DNA from: Caldicellulosiruptor kronotskyensis 2002
GTDB lineage: Bacteria; Bacillota; Thermoanaerobacteria; Caldicellulosiruptorales; Caldicellulosiruptoraceae
Reading direction: 5' to 3'
Assembly (NCBI RefSeq): GCF_000166775.1
Contig: NC_014720.1
Span: 1,234,501 to 1,298,500, forward strand
DNA: 64,000 nt
Below the pieces are notes generated by a model. It did not search any database and was not told the origin of the DNA. It was given only the letters and a program-made list of their open reading frames with translations. Made by a program: the position numbers and the translations under genes. This document shows, in pieces, positions 13,294-59,788 of this stretch; position 1 is the stretch's first letter; the number at the start of each line of letters is the position of its first letter.

Positions 13294-14043
13294 ATGATTC
13301 TCTATTTTGATGCAATCTCAGGCCTTGCGGGTGATATGCTTGTTGCATCGCTGATTGACTGTGGAGTTGATTTTGAGTATATAAAATCAAATATTTCCCT
13401 TTTAAAGCTTGACGTGGAGCTTTCGATTGAGGAGAAATTTGTAAATGGTATTAAAGCAAAAAGATTTATAGTAAATACTATCTCACATGAACATGACCAT
13501 CACAGCGATAGCACCCATCATCACAGAACTTTTAAAGATATAAAAAAGATTCTTTTAGAGAGTTCTTTGCCAGAGGCTGTAAAAGAGATGTCGATAAAAA
13601 TATTTGAAAAGATAGCTTTGGCAGAGGCTAAGGTGCACGGCAAAAACCCAGAAGAAATTTCTTTCCACGAGGTTGGAGCAGATGATTCAATAGTGGATAT
13701 TGTTGCATTTTCTCTTTGTATAGACAATTTAAAGCCTGAAAAAATAGTATTTTCGCCTCTTTGTGACGGCAGAGGTTTTACAAAATCGATGCACGGGATT
13801 ATTCCCGTGCCAGCACCAGCTGTTTTGGAGATAGCAAGGCAAAATGGTATTCCACTTTCCACAAAGGATATTGAATCTGAACTTATAACCCCAACAGGCA
13901 TTGGTATTGCAGCAGCAGTTGCAAGCTCATTTTCCCAAATGCCGAGTATGACCATCGAAAAGATTGGGTATGGTGCAGGGACAAAAGAACTTCCTATTCC
14001 CAATGTTGTAAGGGCTATAGTTGGAAAAAAAACTGAATTTTGA
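13294..14043 (+). CDS. larC: LarC N-terminal part (LarC1), nickel insertase
   Basis: LarC inserts nickel into the pincer nucleotide in a CTP-dependent reaction. This 249-residue frame has the LarC start 'ILYFDAISGLAGDM', the histidine-rich metal-binding stretch at residues 65-77, and the conserved 'SFHEVGADDSIVDI' and 'ELITPTGIGI' blocks. It stops at TGA 14041-14043, shortly after an A8 run (14025-14032). The rest of LarC continues in another frame (14021-14413). A natural LarC1/LarC2 split with a programmed frameshift is known in Lactobacillus plantarum, so this is probably expression control rather than decay. Confidence 0.9.
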   Translation: MILYFDAISGLAGDMLVASLIDCGVDFEYIKSNISLLKLDVELSIEEKFVNGIKAKRFIVNTISHEHDHHSDSTHHHRTFKDIKKILLESSLPEAVKEMSIKIFEKIALAEAKVHGKNPEEISFHEVGADDSIVDIVAFSLCIDNLKPEKIVFSPLCDGRGFTKSMHGIIPVPAPAVLEIARQNGIPLSTKDIESELITPTGIGIAAAVASSFSQMPSMTIEKIGYGAGTKELPIPNVVRAIVGKKTEF

Positions 14044-14413
14044 TGGTGATTATTTTGAGATATTTGCAAACGTTGATGATATGACAGGCGAACACCTTTC
14101 GCTTGCGCTTGAGAAAATAATGCAAAGCGGTGCGTTGGATGTCTATTTTACTCCAATTTTCATGAAAAAAGGTAGGCCAGCTTACAAGATTGGGGTTATA
14201 ACAAAAGCCAAAAACTTTGAGAATGTAGCCTCTGCAATCTTTCGCTGGACATCTACAATTGGTATAAGATTTGTAAAGATGCAAAGAATAGAGATGGAAA
14301 GACAGGAGAAAAGAATTCAGGATAATCCCGAGCTGAGGTTAAAGATAAGTTCTTATGAGGATATTAAAAAAATCAAACTTGAATTTGAAGATATTAAAAA
14401 ATTGACTGAATAA
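14021..14413 (+). CDS. larC: LarC C-terminal part (LarC2), second frame of larC
   Basis: This frame carries the C-terminal LarC domain: 'DYFEIFANVDDMTGEHL', where family members have a 'NIDDMT' block, then 'GRPAYKIGVI' and an ending rich in lysine. It has no good start codon or Shine-Dalgarno of its own (only TTG at 14021), so it is most likely made by frameshifting from LarC1. The shift needed is +1 (or -2): the -1 frame meets TGA at once (14034-14036). Loss of one A from the A8 run in the transcript would give the same fusion, reading GKKLNFDGD. Confidence 0.85.
   Translation: MEKKLNFDGDYFEIFANVDDMTGEHLSLALEKIMQSGALDVYFTPIFMKKGRPAYKIGVITKAKNFENVASAIFRWTSTIGIRFVKMQRIEMERQEKRIQDNPELRLKISSYEDIKKIKLEFEDIKKLTE
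14025..14032 (+). promoter_or_regulatory. larC: A8 slippage site joining larC1 and larC2
   Basis: Eight consecutive A residues follow GG and lie 8 bases before the LarC1 stop. Both frames are readable through this run and join conserved LarC sequence on either side, so it is the likely place for ribosomal or transcriptional slippage. Confidence 0.6.
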
Positions 14414-37200: not shown

Positions 37201-37583
37201 AGAGATGAGCTGAATATCCAAGAACATTTAGCTTTTGTACCCATTTTGTTTCCATGCGACACGTTTAAAATTTGAATGATAGAAAGACCAAAGTTTTTCT
37301 GAGTAATTTAAAAAAATTTAGTTTAAAAGATTATAATAATTCTTTCTTCATTGAGATATAAACACAAATATTTCAAGCTCATCGATACAGTTAATTTTAA
37401 TATATCTATTTTACTAAGTTATGGTATAATGTAAATAAGATAGTAATTTTATGCTTTTTATATTAGTTTGTTAGAGAAAATAACGTATACTGTCTAATAA
37501 AGCCGAATTTTGTTTGTCGAAGGAGGTAATAACAGTTGAAAATAACAATGTAAAAAGGTATAATTTTAACTAAGTGATGTTGA
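37201..37583 (+). other. Intergenic region at the left side of the IS607 element, with an orphan translation start
   Basis: This 383-bp A+T-rich stretch holds no gene of useful size. A TGGTATAAT extended -10 box lies at 37422-37430 without a good -35. A strong Shine-Dalgarno AAGGAGG (37520-37526) stands nine bases before TTG 37536, but the frame ends after five codons (TAA at 37551-37553). This looks like the start of a gene cut off by the insertion to its right. The exact left end of the element was not resolved. Confidence 0.5.
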
Positions 37584-38192
37584 ATGTTACTAAGTGTGCA
37601 AAAAGTTAAAGAGATATATGGCATCAGCCGAAGAACACTAATAAACTGGGAAAAGGAAGGGTTAATAACACCTCTCAGGACACCGAAGGGAAGGAGAAGG
37701 TATAAAAAAGAAGACATAGAAAAGCTACTTGGTATGATAGAGGAAAAACCAAAACCAACCGTTGTTTTGTATGCAAGAGTCTCCACTAAAAAGCAAGAAG
37801 AGTACCTTAAAAACCAAATTAGGAGACTTGAAGAATACGCAAAGTCTAAAGGTTGGCAGTATGAAGTTATATCTGAAATAGCCAGCGGAGTCAATGAAAA
37901 CAGGAGAGGACTATTAAAACTTTTGAACAAAATCAAAAGAGGAGAAGTTGCAAAAGTTGTAATAGAGTATCCAGACAGACTTGCAAGGTTTGGATTTGAG
38001 TATCTTAAGTTTTTCATGGAGAGTTTTGGGGTAGAACTTGTAGTGTTAAATGACAGAGAAAACGAAGAAGATATAAACAGAGAACTGGCAGAGGACTTAA
38101 TAGCGATAGTAACATCTTTTGCAGCGAGGATTTATGGGCAAAGAGGTGCCAAAAAGCATGGTAACAGTTCAGGCGAAGTTAGTGTTCGATAG
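37584..38192 (+). CDS. IS607-family serine recombinase (TnpA)
   Basis: The 202-residue protein has a MerR-like DNA-binding domain at the N-terminus ('VKEIYGISRRTLINWEKEG', 'TPKGRRRYKKEDIEKL') and a serine-resolvase domain with catalytic Ser in 'VLYARVSTKKQEEYLKNQ', followed by 'EIASGVNENRRGLLKLL' and 'VIEYPDRLARFGFEYL'. This domain order is specific to IS607 transposases. The reading frame is complete. Its last 35 bases overlap the start of tnpB in another frame. Confidence 0.93.
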   Translation: MLLSVQKVKEIYGISRRTLINWEKEGLITPLRTPKGRRRYKKEDIEKLLGMIEEKPKPTVVLYARVSTKKQEEYLKNQIRRLEEYAKSKGWQYEVISEIASGVNENRRGLLKLLNKIKRGEVAKVVIEYPDRLARFGFEYLKFFMESFGVELVVLNDRENEEDINRELAEDLIAIVTSFAARIYGQRGAKKHGNSSGEVSVR

Positions 38193-39621
38193 AGAGGAAG
38201 ACAAAAAGGCAGTATTAGACCTTATGAGAAGATGATCCTCTTGTATGAGGTATGCGTATAAGAGACTACTGGAAGGACACAAGAGGAATGAACTTAAAAA
38301 GCAACTCCAGGGGATTTTCAACCTGAACTCTCGATATGTCGATGATGCGATAATGAAAGCAAACAGCGTTTTAAAGTCCTACAAAGAGAGAGGAGAAAAT
38401 CCAAGAAAGGTTATTTTTGGTGGCAGGGAGTTGTTTGAAAAGCTCCAAAAGAGACATATAAACGGCAGGGCATACAGGAAACTTCAACGAGAGTGGAAGG
38501 AGAAAAGAAAAGGGAATCTGTATTCAAGAGGAGACAGGAGCAAAAAGGGGAATCTCAATACAAGGATTGAGATAGATGAAGATTGTACAAGACTTAGAAT
38601 CAACGTAGGAGAAAGGGAATATGTATATGCAAGGATACAGCCTGGATGGAAAGTAAAAGCTGGAACGTACACAGACAGGAATCAACTTCTGCAGTCAATA
38701 AGCATCTCAGGAGAACCCTACTCTGTAGAACTGAAACTCAAAAACGGTGTAGTATATGCCTACTTCACCGTTGAAGAAGTTTTCCCACAGCCTGCGATAA
38801 CGAGAGCGAATGGAGTTATAGGGATAGACACTAACGCATATCCAAAGAATGTTGCATGGGCAGAAACAGATGAGTACGGACAGCTTCTGGGATATGGCAA
38901 GGTAGCAATGCCAGGGCTTGAGAGTGGGAGCTCAAGCAAGAGAGAGTATTACAGGTGGCAGTATGCACACATGATAGTACAGATGGCGAAAGAGAAGCAA
39001 AAAGCCATAGTGATTGAGAGTCTTAGCATACAGGACAGGGGCAAAAGAGGAGATTTTTCAGGAAGAAAATCGAGGCGGATAAGGCACTGTTTTGGATACA
39101 GGTTGCTTTTGGAGAAGATAAAACTTTTAGCAAAGCGAGAAGGGATAGAGGTTGTAGAAGTGAACCCTGCATACACTTCTGTGATAGGAATTCTAAAGTA
39201 TGCACCGCAGTATATGGTAAGCAAGGATGTGGCAGCAGCGTATGTAATAGCAAGAAGAGGATTAGGACTGAAAGAAAGAGTACCGTACAACTACATAGCA
39301 TTCCTCAGTAGACTTGACGTAAACAACATGGAAGAACTGAAGGAACACGTAAAGAAGGTAGTTAAAAACCCATACGTTAGGAAAATACAGCTCAAAAAGA
39401 TAGATAGGGCAATAAAAATATTACAAAGCCCTGGGAGTGAGTCAGGAAGGGTATCAGGGCCTCTGGGTGGAACAAGTTCTGATACCTGTAGTAAATGCTA
39501 CAATTCCTGGCGAGTTCTCAGGGTAGCGGTGGTAACGCCACTCTCCCCTGACAGAGTCCTGCGTGATATGTCTGTCTTGAAATCGCTTTTGATTTCAGGG
39601 CAAGTGGGGAGACCCGGCTAA
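38158..39621 (+). pseudogene. tnpB-like gene with an in-frame TGA and no zinc ribbon
   Basis: The natural start is ATG 38158, inside tnpA: the frame reads MVTVQAKLVFDREEDKK and on to 'LDLMRR', then TGA (38233-38235), then 'SSCMRYAYKRLLEG'. Family members continue through this point, so one codon has become a stop. The remaining frame from ATG 38245 (458 residues) has no Shine-Dalgarno. RuvC-type acidic residues are present in 'GVIGIDTNAYP', 'IVIESLSI' and 'MVSKDVAAAYVIARR'. The CxxC...CxxC zinc ribbon that normally precedes the last aspartate is absent. TnpB is an RNA-guided nuclease that helps retain its element. Confidence 0.85.
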
Positions 39622-39765
39622 AAAGGGCGCAAGTTCCTGCTTCTTGGGGCAGGGGCTATAGCTTTCCCAAAAACCGCCTGCTGGGGCTGGGAAAGCTTGA
39701 AAGGCGGACTACAAATACCCCAGCCACCAAACTTGTGCTAGTTTGCACAGTTTGGTTGACCAGGT
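39480..39765 (+). ncRNA. Candidate omegaRNA / structured right end of the IS607 element
   Basis: The G+C-rich 3' end of tnpB and the bases after it fold strongly. Stem AGCTTTCCC (39660-39668) with GGGAAAGCT (39689-39697) is 9 bp. CCGCC in its loop (39674-39678) pairs with GGCGG (39703-39707), and GCTGGGG (39680-39686) pairs with CCCCAGC (39718-39724), giving two pseudoknots. A last hairpin pairs CCAAAC (39727-39732) with GTTTGG (39750-39755) and TGTGC with GCACA. TnpB guide RNAs come from exactly this place, with the guide just past the element end. The boundaries are inferred. Confidence 0.6.
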
Positions 39766-39771
39766 AAGAGA

Positions 39772-40422
39772 TTGAAGTTAGCTTTTGATCTGCTTTTAGA
39801 TTTATGGTACATATGGGTTTTGCTAATTATAAGCGCAATATTATCATTGTTGAGACCGAAAATAAAAGGAGCATTGGGTGAAAAATCAGTTTCGTTTTTT
39901 CTGGCTCGATTAGACCCTAAAAAGTATAAAGTTTTGAATAACCTTTTGATTAAAGTTGGTTCTAAAACAGTTCAAATAGATCATGTTGTTGTTTCAAATT
40001 ATGGAATATTTGTTATTGAGACAAAAAACTATCAAGGGTGGATTTATGGAAATGAGTTTGACGAGTATTGGACGCAAGTCATTTATAAAAGAAAAGAAAA
40101 ATTTTATAATCCAATCAGGCAGAACTATGGTCATATTCAGGCATTGAAAGAGATTTTAAAAGAGTTTGAAAATTTAAAGTTTATCTCTATAATTGTTTTC
40201 ACGACAAAAGCAGAGCTAAAAGTAAAAGTTAAAACAGATGTGATATATACTGTTAAGTTGCTAAGAACAATAAAGAAATATAACCAGGAATGTCTAACTG
40301 ATGAGCAGCGTGATGCAATTTACGAAAAGCTCAAATCAGCTAATATAAGTGACAGGAGAAACATGAGAGAACATGTGAGGAGTGTTAGAGCAAATAAAAA
40401 GAAGAAAACAATAAAGCTGTAA
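39772..40422 (+). CDS. NERD-domain (nuclease-related) protein
   Basis: The 216-residue protein has one N-terminal membrane helix (about residues 8-26) and then the NERD domain: 'GALGEKSVSFFLARLD', 'QIDHVVVSNYGIFVIETKNY' with the D...ExK nuclease-like core, and 'NPIRQNYGHIQALKEIL'. The C-terminus is strongly basic. It starts with TTG 39772 with only a weak purine-rich site, six bases after the inferred end of the IS607 element. Its original promoter and ribosome site were probably separated by the insertion. It lies 13 bp before the RecQ-like helicase gene. Confidence 0.82.
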   Translation: MKLAFDLLLDLWYIWVLLIISAILSLLRPKIKGALGEKSVSFFLARLDPKKYKVLNNLLIKVGSKTVQIDHVVVSNYGIFVIETKNYQGWIYGNEFDEYWTQVIYKRKEKFYNPIRQNYGHIQALKEILKEFENLKFISIIVFTTKAELKVKVKTDVIYTVKLLRTIKKYNQECLTDEQRDAIYEKLKSANISDRRNMREHVRSVRANKKKKTIKL

Positions 40423-40435
40423 GGAGAGATTCTAT

Positions 40436-43400
40436 ATGTATCCGTCTTTGTTAGATGAGTTTTTTCAGAAAAACAGCCAGAGATTTAAAGATTCTATTAT
40501 TTTCTTCAAAGGTTTTCCAACATGGGTTTATAAACATTTGTTTCAAAAGAATTTTTCAAATTTATCAGGAGAATACTTTTTGAACTCGAAAGGTTACATA
40601 GATGTAAAAAAATTTTTTGGCTATGACAAGAGAAAGTACACAAAGGAAATTTTAGGTAAAAGTGAAAGTATACAAATTTTATGGGGTTTTTACGAGGAAC
40701 TCATTTATATTTCTACATTTTTGAGCCTTTCTCTATTTGGCAGAAAACCGCTTATTGTTAATAATAATCTTTTTAATATCTATTATCCAGTAGATATTGA
40801 ATTGAGTGATGAAGAATATAGTTATTTGAAGCAAATACAAGAGAAAGAAGAAAGTCAACCTATTTTGCATCAAAGTCCTTTAGATATTTATTACCAATTC
40901 TATGCGGACATAAAAAAGAATAAAGATGTAACATTTGTTTCATATATTAATAAACATATAGATGAAGGATTTGAAGAAATAAATTTTTTTGATGAGATAG
41001 ATTTTGATTATTCTATAGGAATTGCAGACAAGAATACTATAAGTGTTAATGATATTCAATATCAATTAGTAGTTAATAAAATTCAAAATGGTGAAATATT
41101 TGACGAGATTAAAATACAGTTAGAAGAAGAACATAATAAAAAACAGATTTCATCTTTTGTAAGTCTTTGTAGAAAGATAAATCAATCCGTAACTATAATT
41201 AAAGGGAATAAATTTTATAACAAAGAAGAGACTGCAAATAAATATCTTTATATTCTAAAAAAATATTGGGGAGAAGAAAGTGAATTTCGAGAATTAAAAT
41301 TTTATAAAGATCCTGATAAAAGCCTTGAACTTGAAACAATAAGTCAAGGGCATATAATTTCGGAAATAATAAGCCAATGCGAAAAAGCTTATAATAATGA
41401 TGATTCGTATAATGATATTTTTATTACAGCTCCAACTGGTTCAGGTAAATCATTGTTGTTCCAAATCCCAGCTATTTATTTAGCAGAAAAAAAGAATGCA
41501 GTCACGATTATTGTGTCTCCACTTATTTCATTAATGAGAGACCAAGTTGAAAGTTTGAAAGATAATGGTGTTAATTTTGCAGAAACAATAAATTCTCAAG
41601 TAACTTATAGTGAAAAAGAAATTATTATTCAAAAGTTAAAAGATGGTGAAATCTCAATAATATATCTTTCCCCAGAATTTTTACTTTCTTCACCAATTGA
41701 AACGTTAATAGGAAATAGAAAACTTGGTTTGTTTGTGATTGATGAGGCTCATTTAGTTACTACATGGGGCAGAGATTTTAGAGTGGATTATTGGTATTTA
41801 GGAGACTATATTAAAAAACTTAGAGAATTACTTAATATGAAATTTCCTGTAGTGTGCTTAACAGCTACTGCTGTATATCAAGGACCAGATGACATGGTCT
41901 TAGAGACCGTTGAAAATCTCAATTTGAGAAAGTGTAAATATTATTTAGGACCTGCTAAGAGGGAGAATATTGAGTTTGAGATAAAATATCATAAGGATTT
42001 AGTTGGATCACATGATAGGTTTAAAATAGAAAGGGCTAAAGAGAGAATAGAGGAATTTTTAGAACGTAAAGAGAAATCAGTGATATATTGTCCTTATACT
42101 ACACATGTTGAGAGCATTTATAATGAACTTGATGCTAAATATAAACATTTTGTTGGAAAATATTATGGAGACTTAGACAAGCTTACAAAGAATGATAATC
42201 AAGTGGAATTCAAAGAAGGCGTAAAAAAGATTATGATTTGCACAAAAGCTTTTGGTATGGGTGTCGATGTAAAGGACATAGTGAATATATATCACTATGC
42301 TCCAACAGGCAATTTAGCTGATTATGTGCAAGAAATTGGTAGAGCAGCAAGAAATCCAAAATTAGTTAAAGGAAAAGCAATAATTGATTTCACTCCCAAG
42401 GATCTTCGCTATATAAGGACATTATATGGTTTATCTGCTATAAGACAATATCAATTGAAAGAGATGATGAGAAAACTCTGTGAAATTTATGATGAAAAGA
42501 AGGTTAGAAATATACTTGTTTCACCTGAGGCATTTTCGTATATTTTTTCAAATGAAAGTGACTTAGAAAATAAAGTTAAAAGTGGACTAATGCTTATATC
42601 AAAGGATTTATATCAAAAATATCAATATCCAGTATTGTTTGTAAGACCACGTGGATTATTCTCACATAATTATATTCATGTCCCATATTCAATTGTAAGT
42701 GATTTTGAAGTCATATTCGGCAAATATTTAACTGAAATAAAAATTGATAATACAAGAGTGATTCCTTCTAATGATAAATTAAATGGAGACACCAAAATTA
42801 TAGATTCAGGGAAAGTCTTTGAAATAAATTTAGCTAAGTTGTGGGAAGAAAAATATTCTAATAAGACATTTGCTGAGTTCAAACGAGAATTTTTTGAAGG
42901 GACGTTATTCGAGTTCAGTGATAAAATAGCACCAAGAGTTAGGTTTAGAGTCGTATATAAATATGATTTTGATGATATCATAAAGCAAATGGAATATGTA
43001 ATGGAAAAATTAGTTTGTATATTTGATGAACTGAAAACAGGGCGTGGGGATAAATTATTTACGTCAAGTGATTTTTTAGAACTATTTAAAAAGTATTTGA
43101 GTGATTTCAATGTTAACACATATATTGCTAATCTGATTCTACAATTATTTTTAGTAAATGAAGAAGATAAATTAGATGCTTTTACTTATAATGCAACTGA
43201 TTTTAAGTTTATTCAGCATGAGGTAGATGCAAAAAGCGGAGAGAAAAGATATAGGGTATGTAGTTATAAATATCGTAACATAAAAAGTCATTGTATAAGA
43301 TTACTTCTCGGAATGAAACCTGATAGATCTATAAGTTCAAAAATTTATGAAAAGTATTTACCAGTCTCAAAAGGTGAATGGTCAAAAGATAACAAAGATG

Positions 43401-43720
43401 TGTCGGAGTTTATTAAAATTGCATCCCTATTAGAAATATTCAAGCTTGCGAGCTATGAAGTTTTTGGTGGCAGGAATATTGAACTCTTCATAAGAATAAA
43501 TGATCCTCAGAAACTGAAATATTTAGCTAATAATCCAAGGTATACTAATAGCATTTTGAGTGATATCGAAAGAAGAAGAAAGAAATCTGAGCAAATATTG
43601 ACTGAATTCTTTTCTAAGCAAATAGATAATAAGACAAGGTGGGATATTATAGAGTTATACTTTTTAGGAAAGATGGATGAAGTAGAAAATCTTTTAAGTC
43701 AATATAAGTCTGAAATTTAG
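40436..43720 (+). CDS. Large RecQ-like DEAH helicase
   Basis: The 1094-residue protein has about 310 residues of unknown, A+T-rich-coded N-terminus. A superfamily 2 helicase core follows: Walker A 'APTGSGKS' (332-339), 'VSPLISLMRDQVESLKDNG', DEAH in 'FVIDEAHLVTTWGRDFRVDYW' (RecQ-type motif; shown in part as 'VIDEAHLVTTWGRDFR'), 'CTKAFGMGVDVKDI' and 'QEIGRAAR'. The last 400 residues lack the RecQ zinc and HRDC domains. With the NERD gene 13 bp upstream it forms a nuclease-helicase pair, probably for defence or DNA processing. A broken copy of its last 52 codons lies at 47848-48005. Confidence 0.85.
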   Translation: MYPSLLDEFFQKNSQRFKDSIIFFKGFPTWVYKHLFQKNFSNLSGEYFLNSKGYIDVKKFFGYDKRKYTKEILGKSESIQILWGFYEELIYISTFLSLSLFGRKPLIVNNNLFNIYYPVDIELSDEEYSYLKQIQEKEESQPILHQSPLDIYYQFYADIKKNKDVTFVSYINKHIDEGFEEINFFDEIDFDYSIGIADKNTISVNDIQYQLVVNKIQNGEIFDEIKIQLEEEHNKKQISSFVSLCRKINQSVTIIKGNKFYNKEETANKYLYILKKYWGEESEFRELKFYKDPDKSLELETISQGHIISEIISQCEKAYNNDDSYNDIFITAPTGSGKSLLFQIPAIYLAEKKNAVTIIVSPLISLMRDQVESLKDNGVNFAETINSQVTYSEKEIIIQKLKDGEISIIYLSPEFLLSSPIETLIGNRKLGLFVIDEAHLVTTWGRDFRVDYWYLGDYIKKLRELLNMKFPVVCLTATAVYQGPDDMVLETVENLNLRKCKYYLGPAKRENIEFEIKYHKDLVGSHDRFKIERAKERIEEFLERKEKSVIYCPYTTHVESIYNELDAKYKHFVGKYYGDLDKLTKNDNQVEFKEGVKKIMICTKAFGMGVDVKDIVNIYHYAPTGNLADYVQEIGRAARNPKLVKGKAIIDFTPKDLRYIRTLYGLSAIRQYQLKEMMRKLCEIYDEKKVRNILVSPEAFSYIFSNESDLENKVKSGLMLISKDLYQKYQYPVLFVRPRGLFSHNYIHVPYSIVSDFEVIFGKYLTEIKIDNTRVIPSNDKLNGDTKIIDSGKVFEINLAKLWEEKYSNKTFAEFKREFFEGTLFEFSDKIAPRVRFRVVYKYDFDDIIKQMEYVMEKLVCIFDELKTGRGDKLFTSSDFLELFKKYLSDFNVNTYIANLILQLFLVNEEDKLDAFTYNATDFKFIQHEVDAKSGEKRYRVCSYKYRNIKSHCIRLLLGMKPDRSISSKIYEKYLPVSKGEWSKDNKDVSEFIKIASLLEIFKLASYEVFGGRNIELFIRINDPQKLKYLANNPRYTNSILSDIERRRKKSEQILTEFFSKQIDNKTRWDIIELYFLGKMDEVENLLSQYKSEI

Positions 43721-44177
43721 CAACGTTAGGCAAAACAATGATAGAATTTAAAAAGCAATCTTTAGTTTAATTTATTGTTGTGTTGTTATAATGAAATCAA
43801 AATCATATACAATAAAAGACCATCTAACTACTTCACTTCTTCCTTCCACCGACTACATTGATGTAAACAGGTCAACGCACCCTGATATCATTATACCACA
43901 GTTGAAATATTTCAGAACATGATGACAGGCTAATCCTGCTGAATTTTTAGGCCAAACTTAAGACAAAATTATTCTTTTGTTACAAATTCTTTCCACTCGC
44001 ACTATAATAGCCTTAAAATACACCTAATTTGCAACAATATTTACAAATAAAACCATAACAAAAATCAAAAAATAACTCTCCACAGAAACTTTGTTAATTT
44101 TATAAATTTATGTGGTAATATATGTATTAGTATGCTAAAAGTTTTTGACATCCTCTTACAGGGGGTGGAAGTTCTCT
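43721..44177. other. Gene-free stretch after the RecQ-like gene
   Basis: I find no gene in this A+T-rich region. The minus strand has a TGGTATAAT extended -10-like box near 43897-43905 but no open frame follows it. The rest is simple A/T sequence leading to the Shine-Dalgarno AGGGGGTGG at about 44159-44167. Confidence 0.4.
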
Positions 44178-44621
44178 ATGCTTAATGATAAGATTTATCC
44201 TGGTTGCAAATTATATCATAGGGGAAATTATATAAGGGACAAAGAAAGTTCTTATGGTGAAGTTATTGTGGTTGATTTTGATGGAGAGTACATAAAATGT
44301 AAAACTTCTAAAGGGATAAAAGTGTTCAGAGTTGATTCAATAGGGAAAAATCTTTTCTTTTCGGAGGATGAGATTAGTGATGTAGTAATGTTAACAGGGG
44401 AAAGTCATATTCCATTAGATGAGTTAAAATATTATATCAACGATGAAAAAGATAAGATTTTTATTGAAGAAAAAACATTTTTTGATAATGTAAAGTCAAA
44501 GTTACAGGAGGAATATAAAAAAGTTTCTGAAGAATTTGAACTTTTAAAATATGGCTTTAACGATTTCTCTGATAGCTTTACAAATTCTTTTGATAAATAT
44601 ACAGCAGTCTTGCAAAGATAA
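44178..44621 (+). CDS. N-terminal piece of a split HelD-like helicase, or separate small protein
   Basis: The 147-residue protein starts at ATG 44178, ten bases after AGGGGGTGG; the frame opens further upstream at TTG 44145. A small beta-rich domain ('GEVIVVDFDGEYIKCKTSKG') leads into a C-terminal coiled coil ending 'SFDKYTAVLQR'. The stop (44619-44621) comes nine bases before the helicase frame. A -1 shift at GTC-TTG (44607-44612) would continue the coil as 'LAKIKTKLQEAINKPYFARLDL' directly into the helicase. In HelD proteins a coiled coil precedes just that 'PYF.R.D' block. Confidence 0.7.
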   Translation: MLNDKIYPGCKLYHRGNYIRDKESSYGEVIVVDFDGEYIKCKTSKGIKVFRVDSIGKNLFFSEDEISDVVMLTGESHIPLDELKYYINDEKDKIFIEEKTFFDNVKSKLQEEYKKVSEEFELLKYGFNDFSDSFTNSFDKYTAVLQR

Positions 44622-44629
44622 AGACGAAA

Positions 44630-46879
44630 TTGCAGGAGGCCATTAATAAACCTTATTTTGCACGATTAGATTTATCAAATTATAATTTAAACACCATATA
44701 TATTGGAGACAGAGCTTTACCTGAGGTGGACAAGAAAATTGTAGATTGGAGAGAACCCGTTTGCCAGGTTTATTATTTACAAAACCGTGTTCTTTTTGAA
44801 AAATATGGAGTGGAGTTAATAAGAAAATTTGATATCTACCAAGGGAGTTTTTGTGGTTATTATGATAGCTATATTAGAGGGATAGACATACTGAGAGACA
44901 AGCATGAGATTGTTGATGAATTTTTACTTGGTATCATAAAAAAGCAAAGAGAGAATCCTGTAATTCATGATATAATTCAGACTATTCAAGATATCCAGTA
45001 CAAGATTATCAGCGAAAAATCGAATAAAAATATTATTGTATTAGGTTGTGCTGGTTCAGGAAAAACAATGGTTTTAGTTCACCGATTGTCTTATCTGCTT
45101 TATAATAATAAAGATCTGTCAAATTCAAAAATTAAAATTATTACACCAAACAAAAATCTCAACGTAGAACTAGATCAACTTGCTCAGAAGTTGGAATTAT
45201 CTAATATACCACGCTATACATTGGAAGAGTATTGGCTTGACTTGATTAGAAGATACTGTAAGTTACATAGAATCTATAAAATTCCTTCTTTAGAGTCTCT
45301 CAAATATGATGTAGATATGCTGGAAGATGATGATAATATAGATCCAAATGTGAGAGATGAAATAAGAAAAATAGATTTTTCATCCGAGTACAGAAAATTT
45401 GAAGAAAATGAGTACGACTTAATTGTTTTACGGGATGTAGTAAGGAAATTTGTTTCCGAGAAAGAAATTATTAATTGTAGAGACAGAAGAGAGTTTTTAA
45501 ACTATTTTCAAAGCAAGTTTTCAGAATTAATCGAAGCAATTGAAATACCGAAAAAGCTATATAATGAGAATAAAAAATTTAACTTGGTTAGCGAATTCAA
45601 AAAAAGAGCACTGAGGTTAAACAGAACAGAAATGGAATTTTTAAATGATATTGATATAGCCTTAAGGAAACTGACGGAGTTAAAAGAGAATGGAAAAATA
45701 GCAGGTAATGGAAGTGTGATTGAGAGTATAATTTCTAAATTAAATATTGTAGAAGAACTTATCATATCTAAAACAATATACTCTAATCTTGACAAAATAA
45801 GCTTTACATTTGAGGAAGAAAATTTCCTTAACGAAAATGCTTATTTTGGCATGAAACATGTGAAAGAAGAGGTTTACAAGGATAGAAAAGGTAATAGAAC
45901 CTTTATACTGCTATCGCCGTTTAGCTATTTTAAGCAGGAACTTATAGATAAAAAGCGTGCTTTTGATGAGATTCAAACAGTATTTGAGACATTTAAAAAG
46001 TACATGGTAGATACATTGAATTATGAAGAAAAAGAAATAACTCTTAGTCAAGTGGAGGATTTCATTATAGATTTTTACAATTTAAATGCTATTGTATTGT
46101 CCTTAGCTGATTTTTTAGAGGGCAAAGAATTGAGTTATTTTACATTTATATGGAAATGTTTTATTGAGCAAATTAAGAACAAATACAAAATCCCCTTGGA
46201 GAAAAAGTATCAATTTGAATTGTATGCCCTATTGGAAGTTTTGTATCACAAATTTGGTGAACTACCTGAAGCAGACAAATATCTTTTTATCGACGAAGCC
46301 CAGGATTTATTGGCAAAAGAGATTATGCTGACAGCAAAAGTCAATGGTATGCCATTTATCAATGCGTTTGGAGACAAATTGCAAAAGACACGATTAATAA
46401 ACCAGGAATACTTTTTTGAGAATTTAGATGGAAACAATTATGATATTTATGAGCTGGATGTAAACTACAGAAATAGCAAGCAGATTACAGAGTATATCAA
46501 TAAAAGATGTTCTTTAAGTATGAAGTCTATTGGGTTAGATGGAGTTGTTGAAGTAATTGAGTTTTCTAAGTTGAGCACTTTAGCTTTTCATGATCTTCTT
46601 AAAAGAATGAATAGCAGAAGAAAAGTTTTGATCTTAAAAGATTTAAATGCATTAGAGAAACTCAAAAATAAAGTGAACATTAATATGGAAGAAGTCAATG
46701 TTATATTCGATTCCCGCAGAAGTTTTTCAGAAAACAAGCTGAATATCTTAAATATAAAAAGTGCAAAAGGTTTAGAATTTCCTGAAGTAATAGTTTTTGA
46801 CTATAACCTTCAACTGAATGAGTTGTATATTGCTTGTTCTCGAGCCTTGGAAAAATTAATTGTAATTGAGTATAGATAA
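44630..46879 (+). CDS. UvrD/HelD-like superfamily 1 helicase
   Basis: The 749-residue frame begins with the HelD block 'NKPYFARLDL', 'IYIGDRALPEVDKKIVDWRE' and has Walker A 'GCAGSGKT' (139-146), Walker B 'YLFIDEAQDLLAKEI', 'DVNYRNSKQITEYI' and 'IKSAKGLEFPEVIVFDYN'. The formal start is TTG 44630, but it lacks a proper ribosome site; AGGAGG lies inside the frame at 44634-44639. HelD proteins act on RNA polymerase or DNA. Here the N-terminal coiled coil is in the previous gene in another frame, so the pair is probably one gene broken or joined by frameshifting. Confidence 0.82.
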   Translation: MQEAINKPYFARLDLSNYNLNTIYIGDRALPEVDKKIVDWREPVCQVYYLQNRVLFEKYGVELIRKFDIYQGSFCGYYDSYIRGIDILRDKHEIVDEFLLGIIKKQRENPVIHDIIQTIQDIQYKIISEKSNKNIIVLGCAGSGKTMVLVHRLSYLLYNNKDLSNSKIKIITPNKNLNVELDQLAQKLELSNIPRYTLEEYWLDLIRRYCKLHRIYKIPSLESLKYDVDMLEDDDNIDPNVRDEIRKIDFSSEYRKFEENEYDLIVLRDVVRKFVSEKEIINCRDRREFLNYFQSKFSELIEAIEIPKKLYNENKKFNLVSEFKKRALRLNRTEMEFLNDIDIALRKLTELKENGKIAGNGSVIESIISKLNIVEELIISKTIYSNLDKISFTFEEENFLNENAYFGMKHVKEEVYKDRKGNRTFILLSPFSYFKQELIDKKRAFDEIQTVFETFKKYMVDTLNYEEKEITLSQVEDFIIDFYNLNAIVLSLADFLEGKELSYFTFIWKCFIEQIKNKYKIPLEKKYQFELYALLEVLYHKFGELPEADKYLFIDEAQDLLAKEIMLTAKVNGMPFINAFGDKLQKTRLINQEYFFENLDGNNYDIYELDVNYRNSKQITEYINKRCSLSMKSIGLDGVVEVIEFSKLSTLAFHDLLKRMNSRRKVLILKDLNALEKLKNKVNINMEEVNVIFDSRRSFSENKLNILNIKSAKGLEFPEVIVFDYNLQLNELYIACSRALEKLIVIEYR

Positions 46880-47008
46880 AAAACTTTTATTATTTATCTC
46901 GAGTAAAGTAGTTTAAAATTAAATTGGTAATTTTAACGAATACATAATGAAAATAGAAGGTAATTGAGCAAGAAGAAAATAATTAATTTAAAAATGGAGG
47001 AATGCACT

Positions 47009-47335
47009 ATGTATTTAAATGAAAATGATATTGAGAAACTTGAAAAGAGATTTTACGAAGATGACTTCAATGAATATCTTGAGAAAATTATAAAAATGGA
47101 TATGATAGAAAAAGACTTTGTAAAAGATATTGCAGAAATAGTTTTGACAGAAGGATATGATTCATTATCAGAAAATCAAAGGAGAGCTTTTATATTTTAT
47201 GCTATTAAACCAAATTACAAGAAAAAATGTAATAAATGTGGTACTGAAATTCTATGGTCAGAGATGATAGAAGCTGTAAAGACGGGTCTATGTGGGTATT
47301 GTTTGCATATATTTCAGAAAGATAAGGAAAGATAA
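47009..47335 (+). CDS. Small protein with C-terminal zinc-finger pattern
   Basis: The 108-residue protein starts at ATG 47009, eight bases after TGGAGGA; the frame opens at TTG 46964 without support. The N-terminal part is acidic and helical. The C-terminus has 'CNKCGTEILWSEM' and 'GLCGYC', a CxxC...CxxC zinc site. It may be a partner of the preceding helicase, from which it is separated by 129 bp. Small zinc-finger proteins of this type are common in defence islands, but I do not recognise this one. Confidence 0.65.
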   Translation: MYLNENDIEKLEKRFYEDDFNEYLEKIIKMDMIEKDFVKDIAEIVLTEGYDSLSENQRRAFIFYAIKPNYKKKCNKCGTEILWSEMIEAVKTGLCGYCLHIFQKDKER

Positions 47336-47847
47336 GTTCTTATTTTACTCATATAATATCTCATGTTATGTTCATTTACAGATTCTGAACTTAGAAGTGC
47401 TATTATAGGGACAAATTAGTAGTTATCTAAAATGGTTATAATGAGCAAAGGAGTAGCTATTAGTCGATATTTTTAAAGAAAGAGGAGATTTTTTAACGAT
47501 TTATTGAAAGTAGTTAGGAAAAAATTGAGCGGGTGAAAAGAAGAACATTCTCCATACGGGCGAAGAACCTGCAAGAAAGCATAGCTTTGTGTCCACGCCA
47601 TGGTAGATGGAACGAGGGAATTGAGGGCTAAAAAATGAGAACCTGAGAGACATGAGAGGGTAAACGCTATGGTTTTGGGTGGACAAAAACCCGCCGTAAT
47701 ATGGTACAAGATAAATACGTGAAATAGGTTAAGTTTAATCTTAGCGTGGCAAATTAAAGTAATAATAGTAATTATAAGCATATAATTATTCATTTCGAGA
47801 ATGAAATTTGAAGAAATAAGGAGATATTTTGAGAAAATCAAAAATAC
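47336..47847. other. Gene-free stretch with a G-rich, structured-looking segment
   Basis: No credible gene is present. Positions about 47515-47700 differ from the A+T-rich surroundings: they are G-rich and have short self-complementary pieces, such as AAAGCATAGCTTT near 47574-47586 and CCATGGTAGATGG near 47599-47611. Frames on either strand are short or interrupted. It could be a decayed mobile-element end or an RNA. I cannot identify it. Confidence 0.35.
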
Positions 47848-48005
47848 ATTGAGAAAGAAGGAGGAAAAAATCTGAACAGATATTAACGGAATTTTTTTCA
47901 AAACAAATTGACACGAAGACAAGATGGGATATTATTGAGTTGTATTTTTTAGGCAAGATGGATGAGGTTGATTATTTATTGAGCCGGTTTAAATATGTGG
48001 AATAA
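47848..48005 (+). pseudogene. Broken second copy of the 3' end of the RecQ-like helicase gene
   Basis: The open stretch ends at TAA 48003-48005. It encodes 'KKSEQILTEFFSKQID' and 'TRWDIIELYFLGKMDEV', nearly identical to the last 52 residues of the RecQ-like protein (43560-43720). The DNA differs mostly at third positions, so it is a diverged homologue rather than a recent duplication. Nothing recognisable of the rest of the gene remains upstream. Confidence 0.85.
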
Positions 48006-48060
48006 CCTAAATAATTCATTTTTAATTTTCCATTTCTTTACAGTTTCATGCATAAAGATG

Positions 48061-48089
48061 TTTACCATTTACTGAAGCATTGTTATAAT
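48061..48089 (+). promoter_or_regulatory. Promoter for the Hma-like defence operon
   Basis: TTTACC (48061-48066) and a perfect TATAAT (48084-48089) are 17 bp apart. The leader to ATG 48248 would be about 150 bases of A+T-rich sequence with no clear structure. Confidence 0.5.
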
Positions 48090-48247
48090 TAAATAAAAGA
48101 TAATTGTCACCAGAGTTTGAAAAATAAGAGCAAATCCAAACATAACAATTTAAAAAATAATTTCAAATTAAAACCTCTAAATTTGAGTTTAAACTTTCTA
48201 AGTAAACTATTGTTAGAAAAATTTAAATTCACTGGAGGTAGTCTCTC

Positions 48248-55033: not shown

Positions 55034-55102
55034 AAGGAGGTGCCCAAAAAGGCAGTATCCTGCAGAAAAAGGGTGCGGGGTATTGCCTTTTTGTAAAATA
55101 TG
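55034..55102 (+). promoter_or_regulatory. Shine-Dalgarno site separated from its start codon by a 19-bp hairpin
   Basis: AAGGAGG (55034-55040) is the only good ribosome site ahead of the helicase gene, but it is 59 bases from ATG 55100. Between them 55046-55064 pairs with 55074-55092 over 19 bp (three G-U pairs, 9-base loop). Folding would leave five bases before and seven after the stem, an effective spacing of 12. The same hairpin ends in TTTTT and could also act as an internal terminator. Confidence 0.65.
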
Positions 55103-57892: not shown

Positions 57893-59788
57893 GTGGGAAA
57901 AGTTTATATATCCAAAGTTGTAGTAGAAAATTTTAGATGTTTTAAAGGAACTGAAATAGGTTTGGAAGAAGACTTAACATTGATAGTTGGCGAAAATGAT
58001 AGTGGTAAGTCTTCTTTTTTAGATGTTTTTAGAATAATTTTTAGTGTGAATAATAAAGCGAAAAAGCAGGATAAAAAGTTAGAAATAGAAGAAGGAGATT
58101 TTTTTGTAAGAAAAAGTGAGCATGAAAAAAACGAAAGTGATTTTATAAATGAACCAATTAGAATAAGAATTGAGCTTTCAAATGGAGACGTTGTAGAGTA
58201 TATAAAAAAAGACTTAAATGAAGATCCTTTATTATGCCTATGTAAATCGACAGATGAATTTAGAGAATACATTCAAAATCCAGACTTAGTCAACAATTTA
58301 AGTGAGGAAAAATTAAAAAAAGTTATAAGCCAATTGGGTGGTAATATTGGTTCTCGTAGTAGCTTAGAGACTTTAAGAAAAAAATTCAGTGATATATTAG
58401 AAGAGAAGAAAGAAGAAATTATTAATAAAGAAAAAATTTCTGTTGAGATAGATAGACTTGATGATTATTTATATGAATATTTTGATTTTTTATATCTTGA
58501 TGGAAAAACATTCTATAATGTAGATGATATTTTGTATAAATTATATTTAGAAGAAAGTTTAATGGGTATACTTGATGAACCTATAAAAATTGGTGAGTAT
58601 GATAAAAAAATTTCTGAAATTATAAACGGAAAAATTGAAAACATTATTAAAGACAAAGAAAAAGAAATAAATGAACTTTTATTAAAAGATATAAAAAATT
58701 TTCTTCCAGAAGTTAAAAGAATAAGTTTATTACATGAATTGGATGGAATTGAAAAGAATATAAGCAAAAGTATTAAGATTAAAGTGTTTTTAAATGAAGA
58801 TAATAATGACCAGGGAATAATGCTAACCAAAAAAGGTGATGGAACAAAACGACGAATGACATTAGCACTACTTAAATATGCAGAAAAAAAGGATTTTAAG
58901 AAGCCTATTCTTTATCTTTTTGATGAACCCGATACGCATTTACATGTGAGAGCGCAATATGAGTTGATGTCAATTATTGAAAAGTTAAAGATGGATAACC
59001 AGATAGTAATGACAACACATTCGCCCTTTATAATTAACTATGTTTTGCCGAAAAAAATTGTGTTGTTTGAAAAAATAAATGGGGAAACGAAAGTTGAAAA
59101 ATCATTTATGAATGAAAGAGCAGAGGATGAAATAAGAGAACTGTTTAGGGAATTAGGAATAGAAAATAGCGATTTATTCTTTACCAGAAAAGTAGTGCTT
59201 GTAGAAGGATCGACAGATGAAGAAGCATTGAATATCCTTTATGAAAAATTATATGATAGGATGTTGTACAATGATTTGATAAAGATAATTCACATTAAGG
59301 GATGTGACAAAGCGGAACCATTTTGTAGAATAATACAAGAGTTTATGCCATATATCAAGTTGTATGTGTTTATAGACAATGATATTTGGAACAATCCGAA
59401 TCACAGTTTTCGCAAATTTATTGGAGAATGCAAAAAAAGAAACATTGTTTTAGATGTTATTTCCGTGGGTGAAAAAGAATTTGAAGATGCATTTACTGAT
59501 GAAACGATTAAAAGAACTATCCAAAAAATTATAAATGATATTATTACTCCTGATTTAATAAGTGAAATTGATAAATGGGTTTTAAATTTGCGTAAAAAAC
59601 TAAGTGGTGACAAAAAAACAAAATATAGTGAGGAAATTAAGGAATTTATAAATAGTATCTTCGACCGAAATCAAGTTGATTTATCGATAGAAAAAGGATG
59701 TATTTTACCTGAATTGGCAAAGAACTGTGAGGTTAGTGAAATACCATTTGAGGTTAATAAATTATTTGAAAAATTACGAGAGGAATAA
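57893..59788 (+). CDS. OLD-family ATPase-TOPRIM nuclease
   Basis: The 631-residue protein starts with GTG behind AGAGGTGGAAG. It has an ABC-type ATPase with Walker A 'GENDSGKSS' (33-41) and a C-terminal Walker B/D-loop 'ILYLFDEPDTHLHVRAQYEL', then a TOPRIM nuclease domain with Glu438 in 'VVLVEGSTDEEAL' and the metal-binding 'FIDNDIW' around Asp495. OLD nucleases act in phage exclusion (P2 Old, GajA of Gabija). The next gene encodes a membrane protein, not the UvrD-like GajB, so this is not a standard Gabija system. Base use is more A+T-rich than the neighbouring operon. Confidence 0.88.
   Translation: MGKVYISKVVVENFRCFKGTEIGLEEDLTLIVGENDSGKSSFLDVFRIIFSVNNKAKKQDKKLEIEEGDFFVRKSEHEKNESDFINEPIRIRIELSNGDVVEYIKKDLNEDPLLCLCKSTDEFREYIQNPDLVNNLSEEKLKKVISQLGGNIGSRSSLETLRKKFSDILEEKKEEIINKEKISVEIDRLDDYLYEYFDFLYLDGKTFYNVDDILYKLYLEESLMGILDEPIKIGEYDKKISEIINGKIENIIKDKEKEINELLLKDIKNFLPEVKRISLLHELDGIEKNISKSIKIKVFLNEDNNDQGIMLTKKGDGTKRRMTLALLKYAEKKDFKKPILYLFDEPDTHLHVRAQYELMSIIEKLKMDNQIVMTTHSPFIINYVLPKKIVLFEKINGETKVEKSFMNERAEDEIRELFRELGIENSDLFFTRKVVLVEGSTDEEALNILYEKLYDRMLYNDLIKIIHIKGCDKAEPFCRIIQEFMPYIKLYVFIDNDIWNNPNHSFRKFIGECKKRNIVLDVISVGEKEFEDAFTDETIKRTIQKIINDIITPDLISEIDKWVLNLRKKLSGDKKTKYSEEIKEFINSIFDRNQVDLSIEKGCILPELAKNCEVSEIPFEVNKLFEKLREE

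What the first reader, a model, noticed from the sequence alone, without database searches (positions are those of the whole stretch)
44178..46879. HelD-like helicase split between two frames
The coiled coil that should precede the 'PYFARLDL' block is in the 147-residue gene, and a -1 shift near 44607-44612 joins the two as '...TAV-LAKIKTKLQEAINKPYFARLDL'. The second frame has no proper ribosome site. There is no obvious slippery heptamer. It is either a recent one-base indel, a sequencing error, or an unusual coupled pair.
Basis: seen in the sequence. Interest (0 to 1): 0.5.

Follow-up and report, generated by a model that had tools for sequence, protein, structure and literature searches.

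The report
Frame-broken HelD-like helicase gene
One gene for a HelD-like motor protein (a kind that, in other bacteria, frees stuck RNA polymerase) looks broken in two by a small shift of the reading frame, an ordinary kind of gene damage or a sequencing error rather than a new arrangement.

Summary
A 147-codon ORF (44178-44621) with a strong ribosome site ends in TAA, and the helicase block continues in the -1 frame, open from 44597 to 46879. Both frames are open together only over 44597-44618. The only common start of the second frame before GTG 44726 is TTG 44630, which has almost no Shine-Dalgarno pairing. The helicase part enters the HelD_BACSU profile at position 91 of 779 and aligns with B. 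subtilis HelD from residue 93, so the N-terminal arm is missing from its frame. In 28 of 29 relatives examined, 62-139 residues precede the PYFxR block in one frame; the 29th is cut by the edge of its stretch. None is split at this place. A same-genus relative is intact in one 775-aa frame. I read this as one HelD-like gene with one frame break (mutation or sequencing error) in a defence island. Against it: the coil's sequence homology could not be shown (60 of 300 shuffles score as well), and no close orthologue was found, so a rescued or regulated split is not excluded. The ~80-residue N-terminus of ORF 1 has no detected relative.

The parts
44158..44177 (+). Shine-Dalgarno region of ORF 1 (ACAGGGGGTGG...)
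   Evidence: anti-SD duplex -14.1 kcal/mol
44178..44621 (+). ORF 1, 147 aa: about 80-residue N-terminus of unknown family, then a predicted helix read as the first part of the HelD secondary-channel arm
   Evidence: no Pfam family above its cut-off, no NCBIfam family up to E 0.1; only itself in 398 genomes at E 0.001
44597..44618 (+). interval in which both reading frames are open; the frame break lies here
   Evidence: stops listed; no slippery heptamer
44609..46879 (+). helicase block in the -1 frame, 756 codons read from 44609; Walker A GSGKT at 45053, motif II IDEAQD at 46289, GDKLQ 46370, NYRNS 46463, KGLEF 46766, CSRA 46835
   Evidence: HelD_BACSU from profile position 91; PDB 6wvk chain H from residue 93
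44630..46879 (+). second ORF if it were started on its own at TTG 44630 (749 aa); almost no ribosome site

Best explanation
This is one gene for a HelD-like superfamily 1 NTPase, with an extra small N-terminal part, whose reading frame is broken once between 44597 and 44618 by a small indel (recent, since the motor looks undecayed) or by an error in the deposited sequence. Intact, it would work like HelD: a coiled-coil arm enters the RNA polymerase secondary channel and an NTP-driven body dislodges nucleic acid (known for B. subtilis HelD; inferred here). As written, ribosomes stop at 44621 and make a 147-aa arm without a motor, and the motor part is hardly translated for want of a ribosome site. 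Shown: the frames, the near-absent ribosome site, the HelD match starting where the arm would end, one-frame relatives, motifs present. Inferred: that ORF 1's helix is the arm, the activity, and the recency.
For: The helicase frame matches NF041464 HelD_BACSU from profile position 91 of 779 (HelD_MYCSM from 57 of 719) and B. subtilis HelD 6wvk from residue 93, so the arm is missing from that frame. In 28 of 29 relatives examined, 62-139 residues, counted from the first possible start codon, precede PYFxR in the same frame; the 29th (L041, 31 residues) begins at the edge of the fetched stretch. None is split at this place. The same-genus gene of G003 is one 775-aa frame that aligns with the joined query from residue 88 to 901 at 27.6%. 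TTG 44630 has almost no SD, whereas ATG 44178 has a strong one. The helicase motifs are present. Broken genes of this sort are seen in two other genomes of the genus: the G011 copy of the G003 gene is interrupted by an insertion, and in G005 the NERD gene looks truncated and the DUF1156 gene is interrupted.
Against: Coil homology is not supported by sequence. With a relatives' HMM, 60 of 300 coil shuffles and 59 of 300 whole-ORF shuffles score at least as well as the real joined protein, and ORF 1 alone scores 0.8 bits. Pairwise, mean z is 0.95 over 29 relatives, with 3 of 29 reached by at most 3 of 300 shuffles; the control (ORF 1 residues 1-67) has mean z 0.18 but a maximum of 4.5. The seven residues before TTG 44630 in the second frame are not significant (167 of 1000 random and 510 of 1000 shuffled peptides as good). 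ORF 1 has about 80 residues with no relative found. No relative closer than 42% (best segment, G003) was found, so the ancestral frame was not seen directly. Two of 24 other window ORF starts also lack an SD.
Confidence: 0.8

Rival explanations
1. The break is read through: ribosomes shift -1 in 44597-44618, or stop and re-start at TTG 44630, so that some full-length or split HelD is made on purpose.
For: The helicase frame is open with its motifs over about 750 codons, and only 8 nt lie between the stop and TTG 44630. A two-frame layout also occurs in this window in larC, at an A-run; 9 of 14 larC1 matches in 13 genomes have short frames.
Against: No slippery heptamer, almost no SD at the re-start, unremarkable local RNA fold (z -1.31, 19 of 200 shuffles as good), and none of 29 relatives split at this place.
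Confidence: 0.12
2. These are two independent genes: a small coiled-coil protein of its own family and a HelD-like helicase that lost its arm.
For: ORF 1 has a strong SD, about 80 residues not found elsewhere, and no sequence-level coil match.
Against: The second ORF has almost no start signal. There is no gap between the open frames, and codon preference changes frame across one 60-base bin. ORF 1 was not found alone in any of 397 other genomes at E 0.001 or in plasmids, phages or viral contigs.
Confidence: 0.07

Closest known systems
HelD, RNA polymerase recycling motor (NCBIfam NF041464; B. subtilis structures 6wvk, 6zca, 6zfb)
   Same: PYFxR block, Walker A and the later SF1 motifs in the same order; long stretch between Walker A and motif II; an ORF just upstream where the N-terminal arm would be
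   Different: 75.4 bits against a cut-off of 419; frame broken; about 80 extra N-terminal residues; Walker A to motif II is 412 residues against 273-354 in the 25 of 29 relatives that could be measured; lies among defence-type genes
HelD-like gene of the same genus (G003:C1, 775 aa; G011 copy interrupted)
   Same: 27.6% identity from joined residue 88 to 901, 42% in the best segment
   Different: single intact frame, no extra N-terminal part, different neighbourhood
GajB (Gabija UvrD-like helicase)
   Same: weak match, best PADLOC E 1.1e-11 to the helicase part
   Different: best stretch is 64 residues; no OLD nuclease gene adjacent in the window

Membership tests
HelD RNA polymerase recycling motor | SF1 NTPase motifs | tested here: met
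   GSGKT, IDEAQD, GDKLQ, NYRNS, KGLEF, CSRA; aligned to 6wvk
HelD RNA polymerase recycling motor | curated NCBIfam equivalog cut-off | tested here: not met
   75.4 bits against 419 for NF041464
HelD RNA polymerase recycling motor | N-terminal coiled-coil arm in the same frame | tested here: not met
   the frame is broken at 44597-44618
HelD RNA polymerase recycling motor | the upstream ORF encodes that arm, by sequence similarity | tested here: inconclusive
   60 of 300 shuffles as good; mean pairwise z 0.95; helix 91-146 predicted at low to middling confidence
HelD RNA polymerase recycling motor | binds RNA polymerase and releases nucleic acid | not testable with these tools
   described for B. 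subtilis HelD (PMC7749165, abstract and passages)
Gabija (GajAB) | GajA-type OLD/TOPRIM gene next to a GajB helicase | tested here: not met
   neighbours are a RecQ-like helicase and a small ORF; the ATPase gene at 57893 is about 11 kb away
programmed ribosomal frameshift gene | slippery site and conserved two-frame layout in relatives | tested here: not met
   no heptamer in 44596-44619; 0 of 29 relatives split at this place

The most novel reading that the evidence does not exclude
A HelD-like motor deliberately made in two pieces, or in a low frameshifted dose. A free secondary-channel arm with a new N-terminal domain would be produced in excess, and would itself block RNA polymerase as a defence effector, while the motor that clears it is made rarely.
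Probability: 0.05. Interest if true: 0.6.

Novelty: new member of a known kind. Interest (0 to 1): 0.15.

Why it matters
It matters mainly as a correction: the pair is best annotated as one disrupted HelD-like gene, not as two genes. If the split proved functional, it would show that the RNA-polymerase arm of HelD can act apart from its motor. The same locus shows that the slot between two defence-type genes holds a different gene in a near relative.

Tried and rejected
A programmed -1 shift was looked for: no slippery heptamer and no notable RNA fold. An internal start was looked for: ATT 44642 has SD-like pairing (-9.7) but only 2 nt of spacing, and GTG 44726 would cut off the PYFAR block. 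Proving the coil by profile, pairwise and short-peptide controls failed. A first pass over the 29 loci with a fixed PYF[AG]R-type pattern missed 6 of them; the counts given come from the alignment. Two of the 29 are damaged elsewhere or short: L053 has a TAA further on (frame 258 aa) and L043 has a 478-aa frame.

Closer relatives of the helicase were sought in genome contigs, viral contigs, plasmids, phages, the family (13 genomes), the class (37 genomes) and the phylum (398 genomes; 348 genomes); for ORF 1. The phylum searches scored only a few candidates a genome (2, 3, up to 9), so a relative could be missed. Only G003 and G011 came out closer than the general HelD level. The neighbouring RecQ-like gene was used as a lead: of 7 other loci with a relative of it that I fetched, 0 had a match to ORF 1 or the helicase at 1e-4, so a fixed RecQ-HelD module is not supported. 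Structure prediction of ORF 1 gave mean pLDDT 47.8, too poor for a fold search. One paper search for HelD with frameshift (listing only) showed nothing relevant in the 10 rows listed; 'held' is a common word, so this says little. Two Rfam scans gave no match.

Full report
What is there. The window lies in a single-contig genome of 2,843,785 bases. From size it is probably Caldicellulosiruptor kronotskyensis (2.84 Mb in a passage of PMC10434631; the exact length and the name are recalled). ORF 1 runs from ATG 44178 to TAA 44619-44621 (147 codons). The next coding block is in the -1 frame, open from 44597 to 46879. The two open frames overlap over 44597-44618 only.

Start signals. ATG 44178 has an anti-SD duplex of -14.1 kcal/mol. 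TTG 44630, the only ATG/GTG/TTG of the second frame between 44597 and GTG 44726, has -1.5, and 80% of 2000 random positions do as well or better. Against this, 2 of 24 other ORF starts listed from the window (55100, 61271) score no better; whether those are the true starts was not checked. ATT 44642 follows an AGGAGG at only 2 nt. No X_XXY_YYZ heptamer starts in 44596-44619, and the local RNA fold is unremarkable (z -1.31).

What it encodes. The second frame is a HelD-like SF1 NTPase. NCBIfam HelD_BACSU matches at 2.3e-21 from profile position 91 on, with 75.4 bits against a cut-off of 419. PDB 6wvk chain H (B. subtilis HelD) matches at 3.9e-16 from residue 93. GSGKT, IDEAQD, GDKLQ, NYRNS, KGLEF and CSRA are present. 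In B. subtilis HelD a Gre-like coiled coil enters the RNA polymerase secondary channel (PMC7749165, abstract and passages), and the N-terminal domain mediates rifampicin protection (PMC12802891, abstract and passages).

Relatives. Of 398 phylum genomes (own included), 88 hold a match to the joined query at 1e-10. I examined 29 loci: the G003 stretch and the 28 further relatives for which one search gave loci (the best matches, not all). In 28 of 29, 62-139 residues, counted from the first possible start codon, precede PYFxR in the same open frame. The exception, L041 (31 residues), begins at the edge of its stretch. L053 is stopped further on and L043 is short. The same-genus G003 protein is a single 775-aa frame aligning from joined residue 88 to 901. 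The G011 copy of that gene is interrupted by an insertion. ORF 1 itself matches only itself in 398 genomes at 0.001, and nothing in plasmids, phages or viral contigs.

Results against. The coil in ORF 1 is not recognisable by sequence: 60 of 300 coil shuffles score as well in a relatives' HMM, and mean pairwise z is 0.95 over 29, with a control region reaching 4.5. The seven residues before TTG 44630 are not significant either. The argument therefore rests on architecture, start signals, the change of frame without a gap, and motifs that are present. AlphaFold gives a helix at 91-146 of ORF 1 (block pLDDT 63-81 from residue 101) and short strands at 30-52 at low confidence; mean pLDDT 47.8.

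Neighbourhood. Upstream are a NERD gene (39772-40422) and a RecQ-like helicase (40436-43720, PADLOC C3a193 at 8e-248). Downstream are DUF499, DUF3780 and a DUF1156 methyltransferase, and at 55100 a helicase-like ORF (by eye, not searched). In G005 the RecQ-like protein is 97% identical, but the slot before DUF499 holds a 734-aa OLD-family ATPase/TOPRIM gene in place of the HelD gene. In 7 of 7 other loci with a relative of the RecQ-like gene, no HelD match was found. In the window the slot ends with a fragment that in G003 adjoins an IS110-family transposase gene and with a 120-base, 82-85% copy of the RecQ 3' end. The slot has been rearranged, which would fit a gene acquired late; that is inference.

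Verdict. One HelD-like gene, broken once in frame, by mutation or sequencing error. Reads would tell which.

Noticed in passing
window 13294-14413: larC is split into larC1 (13294-14043) and a larC2 frame (to 14413) at an A-run (14025-14032); in 13 genomes of the family 5 of 14 larC1 matches have frames of 375-405 aa and 9 have 248-279 aa. Programmed frameshifting of larC is recalled, not searched.
   Followed up: partly
window 43743-48225: The slot between the RecQ-like gene and DUF499 holds the HelD gene here but an OLD-family ATPase/TOPRIM gene in the near relative G005 (L018:8998-11202).
   Followed up: partly
window 47852-47971: 120-base remnant of the 3' end of the RecQ-like gene, 82% identical to the intact copy at about 43568-43686 and 85% to that of G005.
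   Followed up: partly
window 47480-47760: Repetitive fragment found in 8 other genomes of the genus (up to 11 matches in one); in G003 (L075) it lies beside the 3' end of an IS110-family transposase gene, so it is probably the non-coding end of such an element without its transposase.
   Followed up: partly
L018:5169-5634 and L018:15141-19356: In G005 the NERD gene looks truncated and frame-shifted, and the DUF1156 gene is interrupted by a 409-aa ORF on the other strand.
   Followed up: no
window 37450-40015: Segment absent from G005, holding a serine recombinase and a TnpB-like gene (IS607-like, by eye and recall) and the start of the NERD gene.
   Followed up: no
window 47009-47335: Small ORF with a good ribosome site and a CxxC...CxxC pattern near its C-terminus, no confident family.
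   Followed up: no
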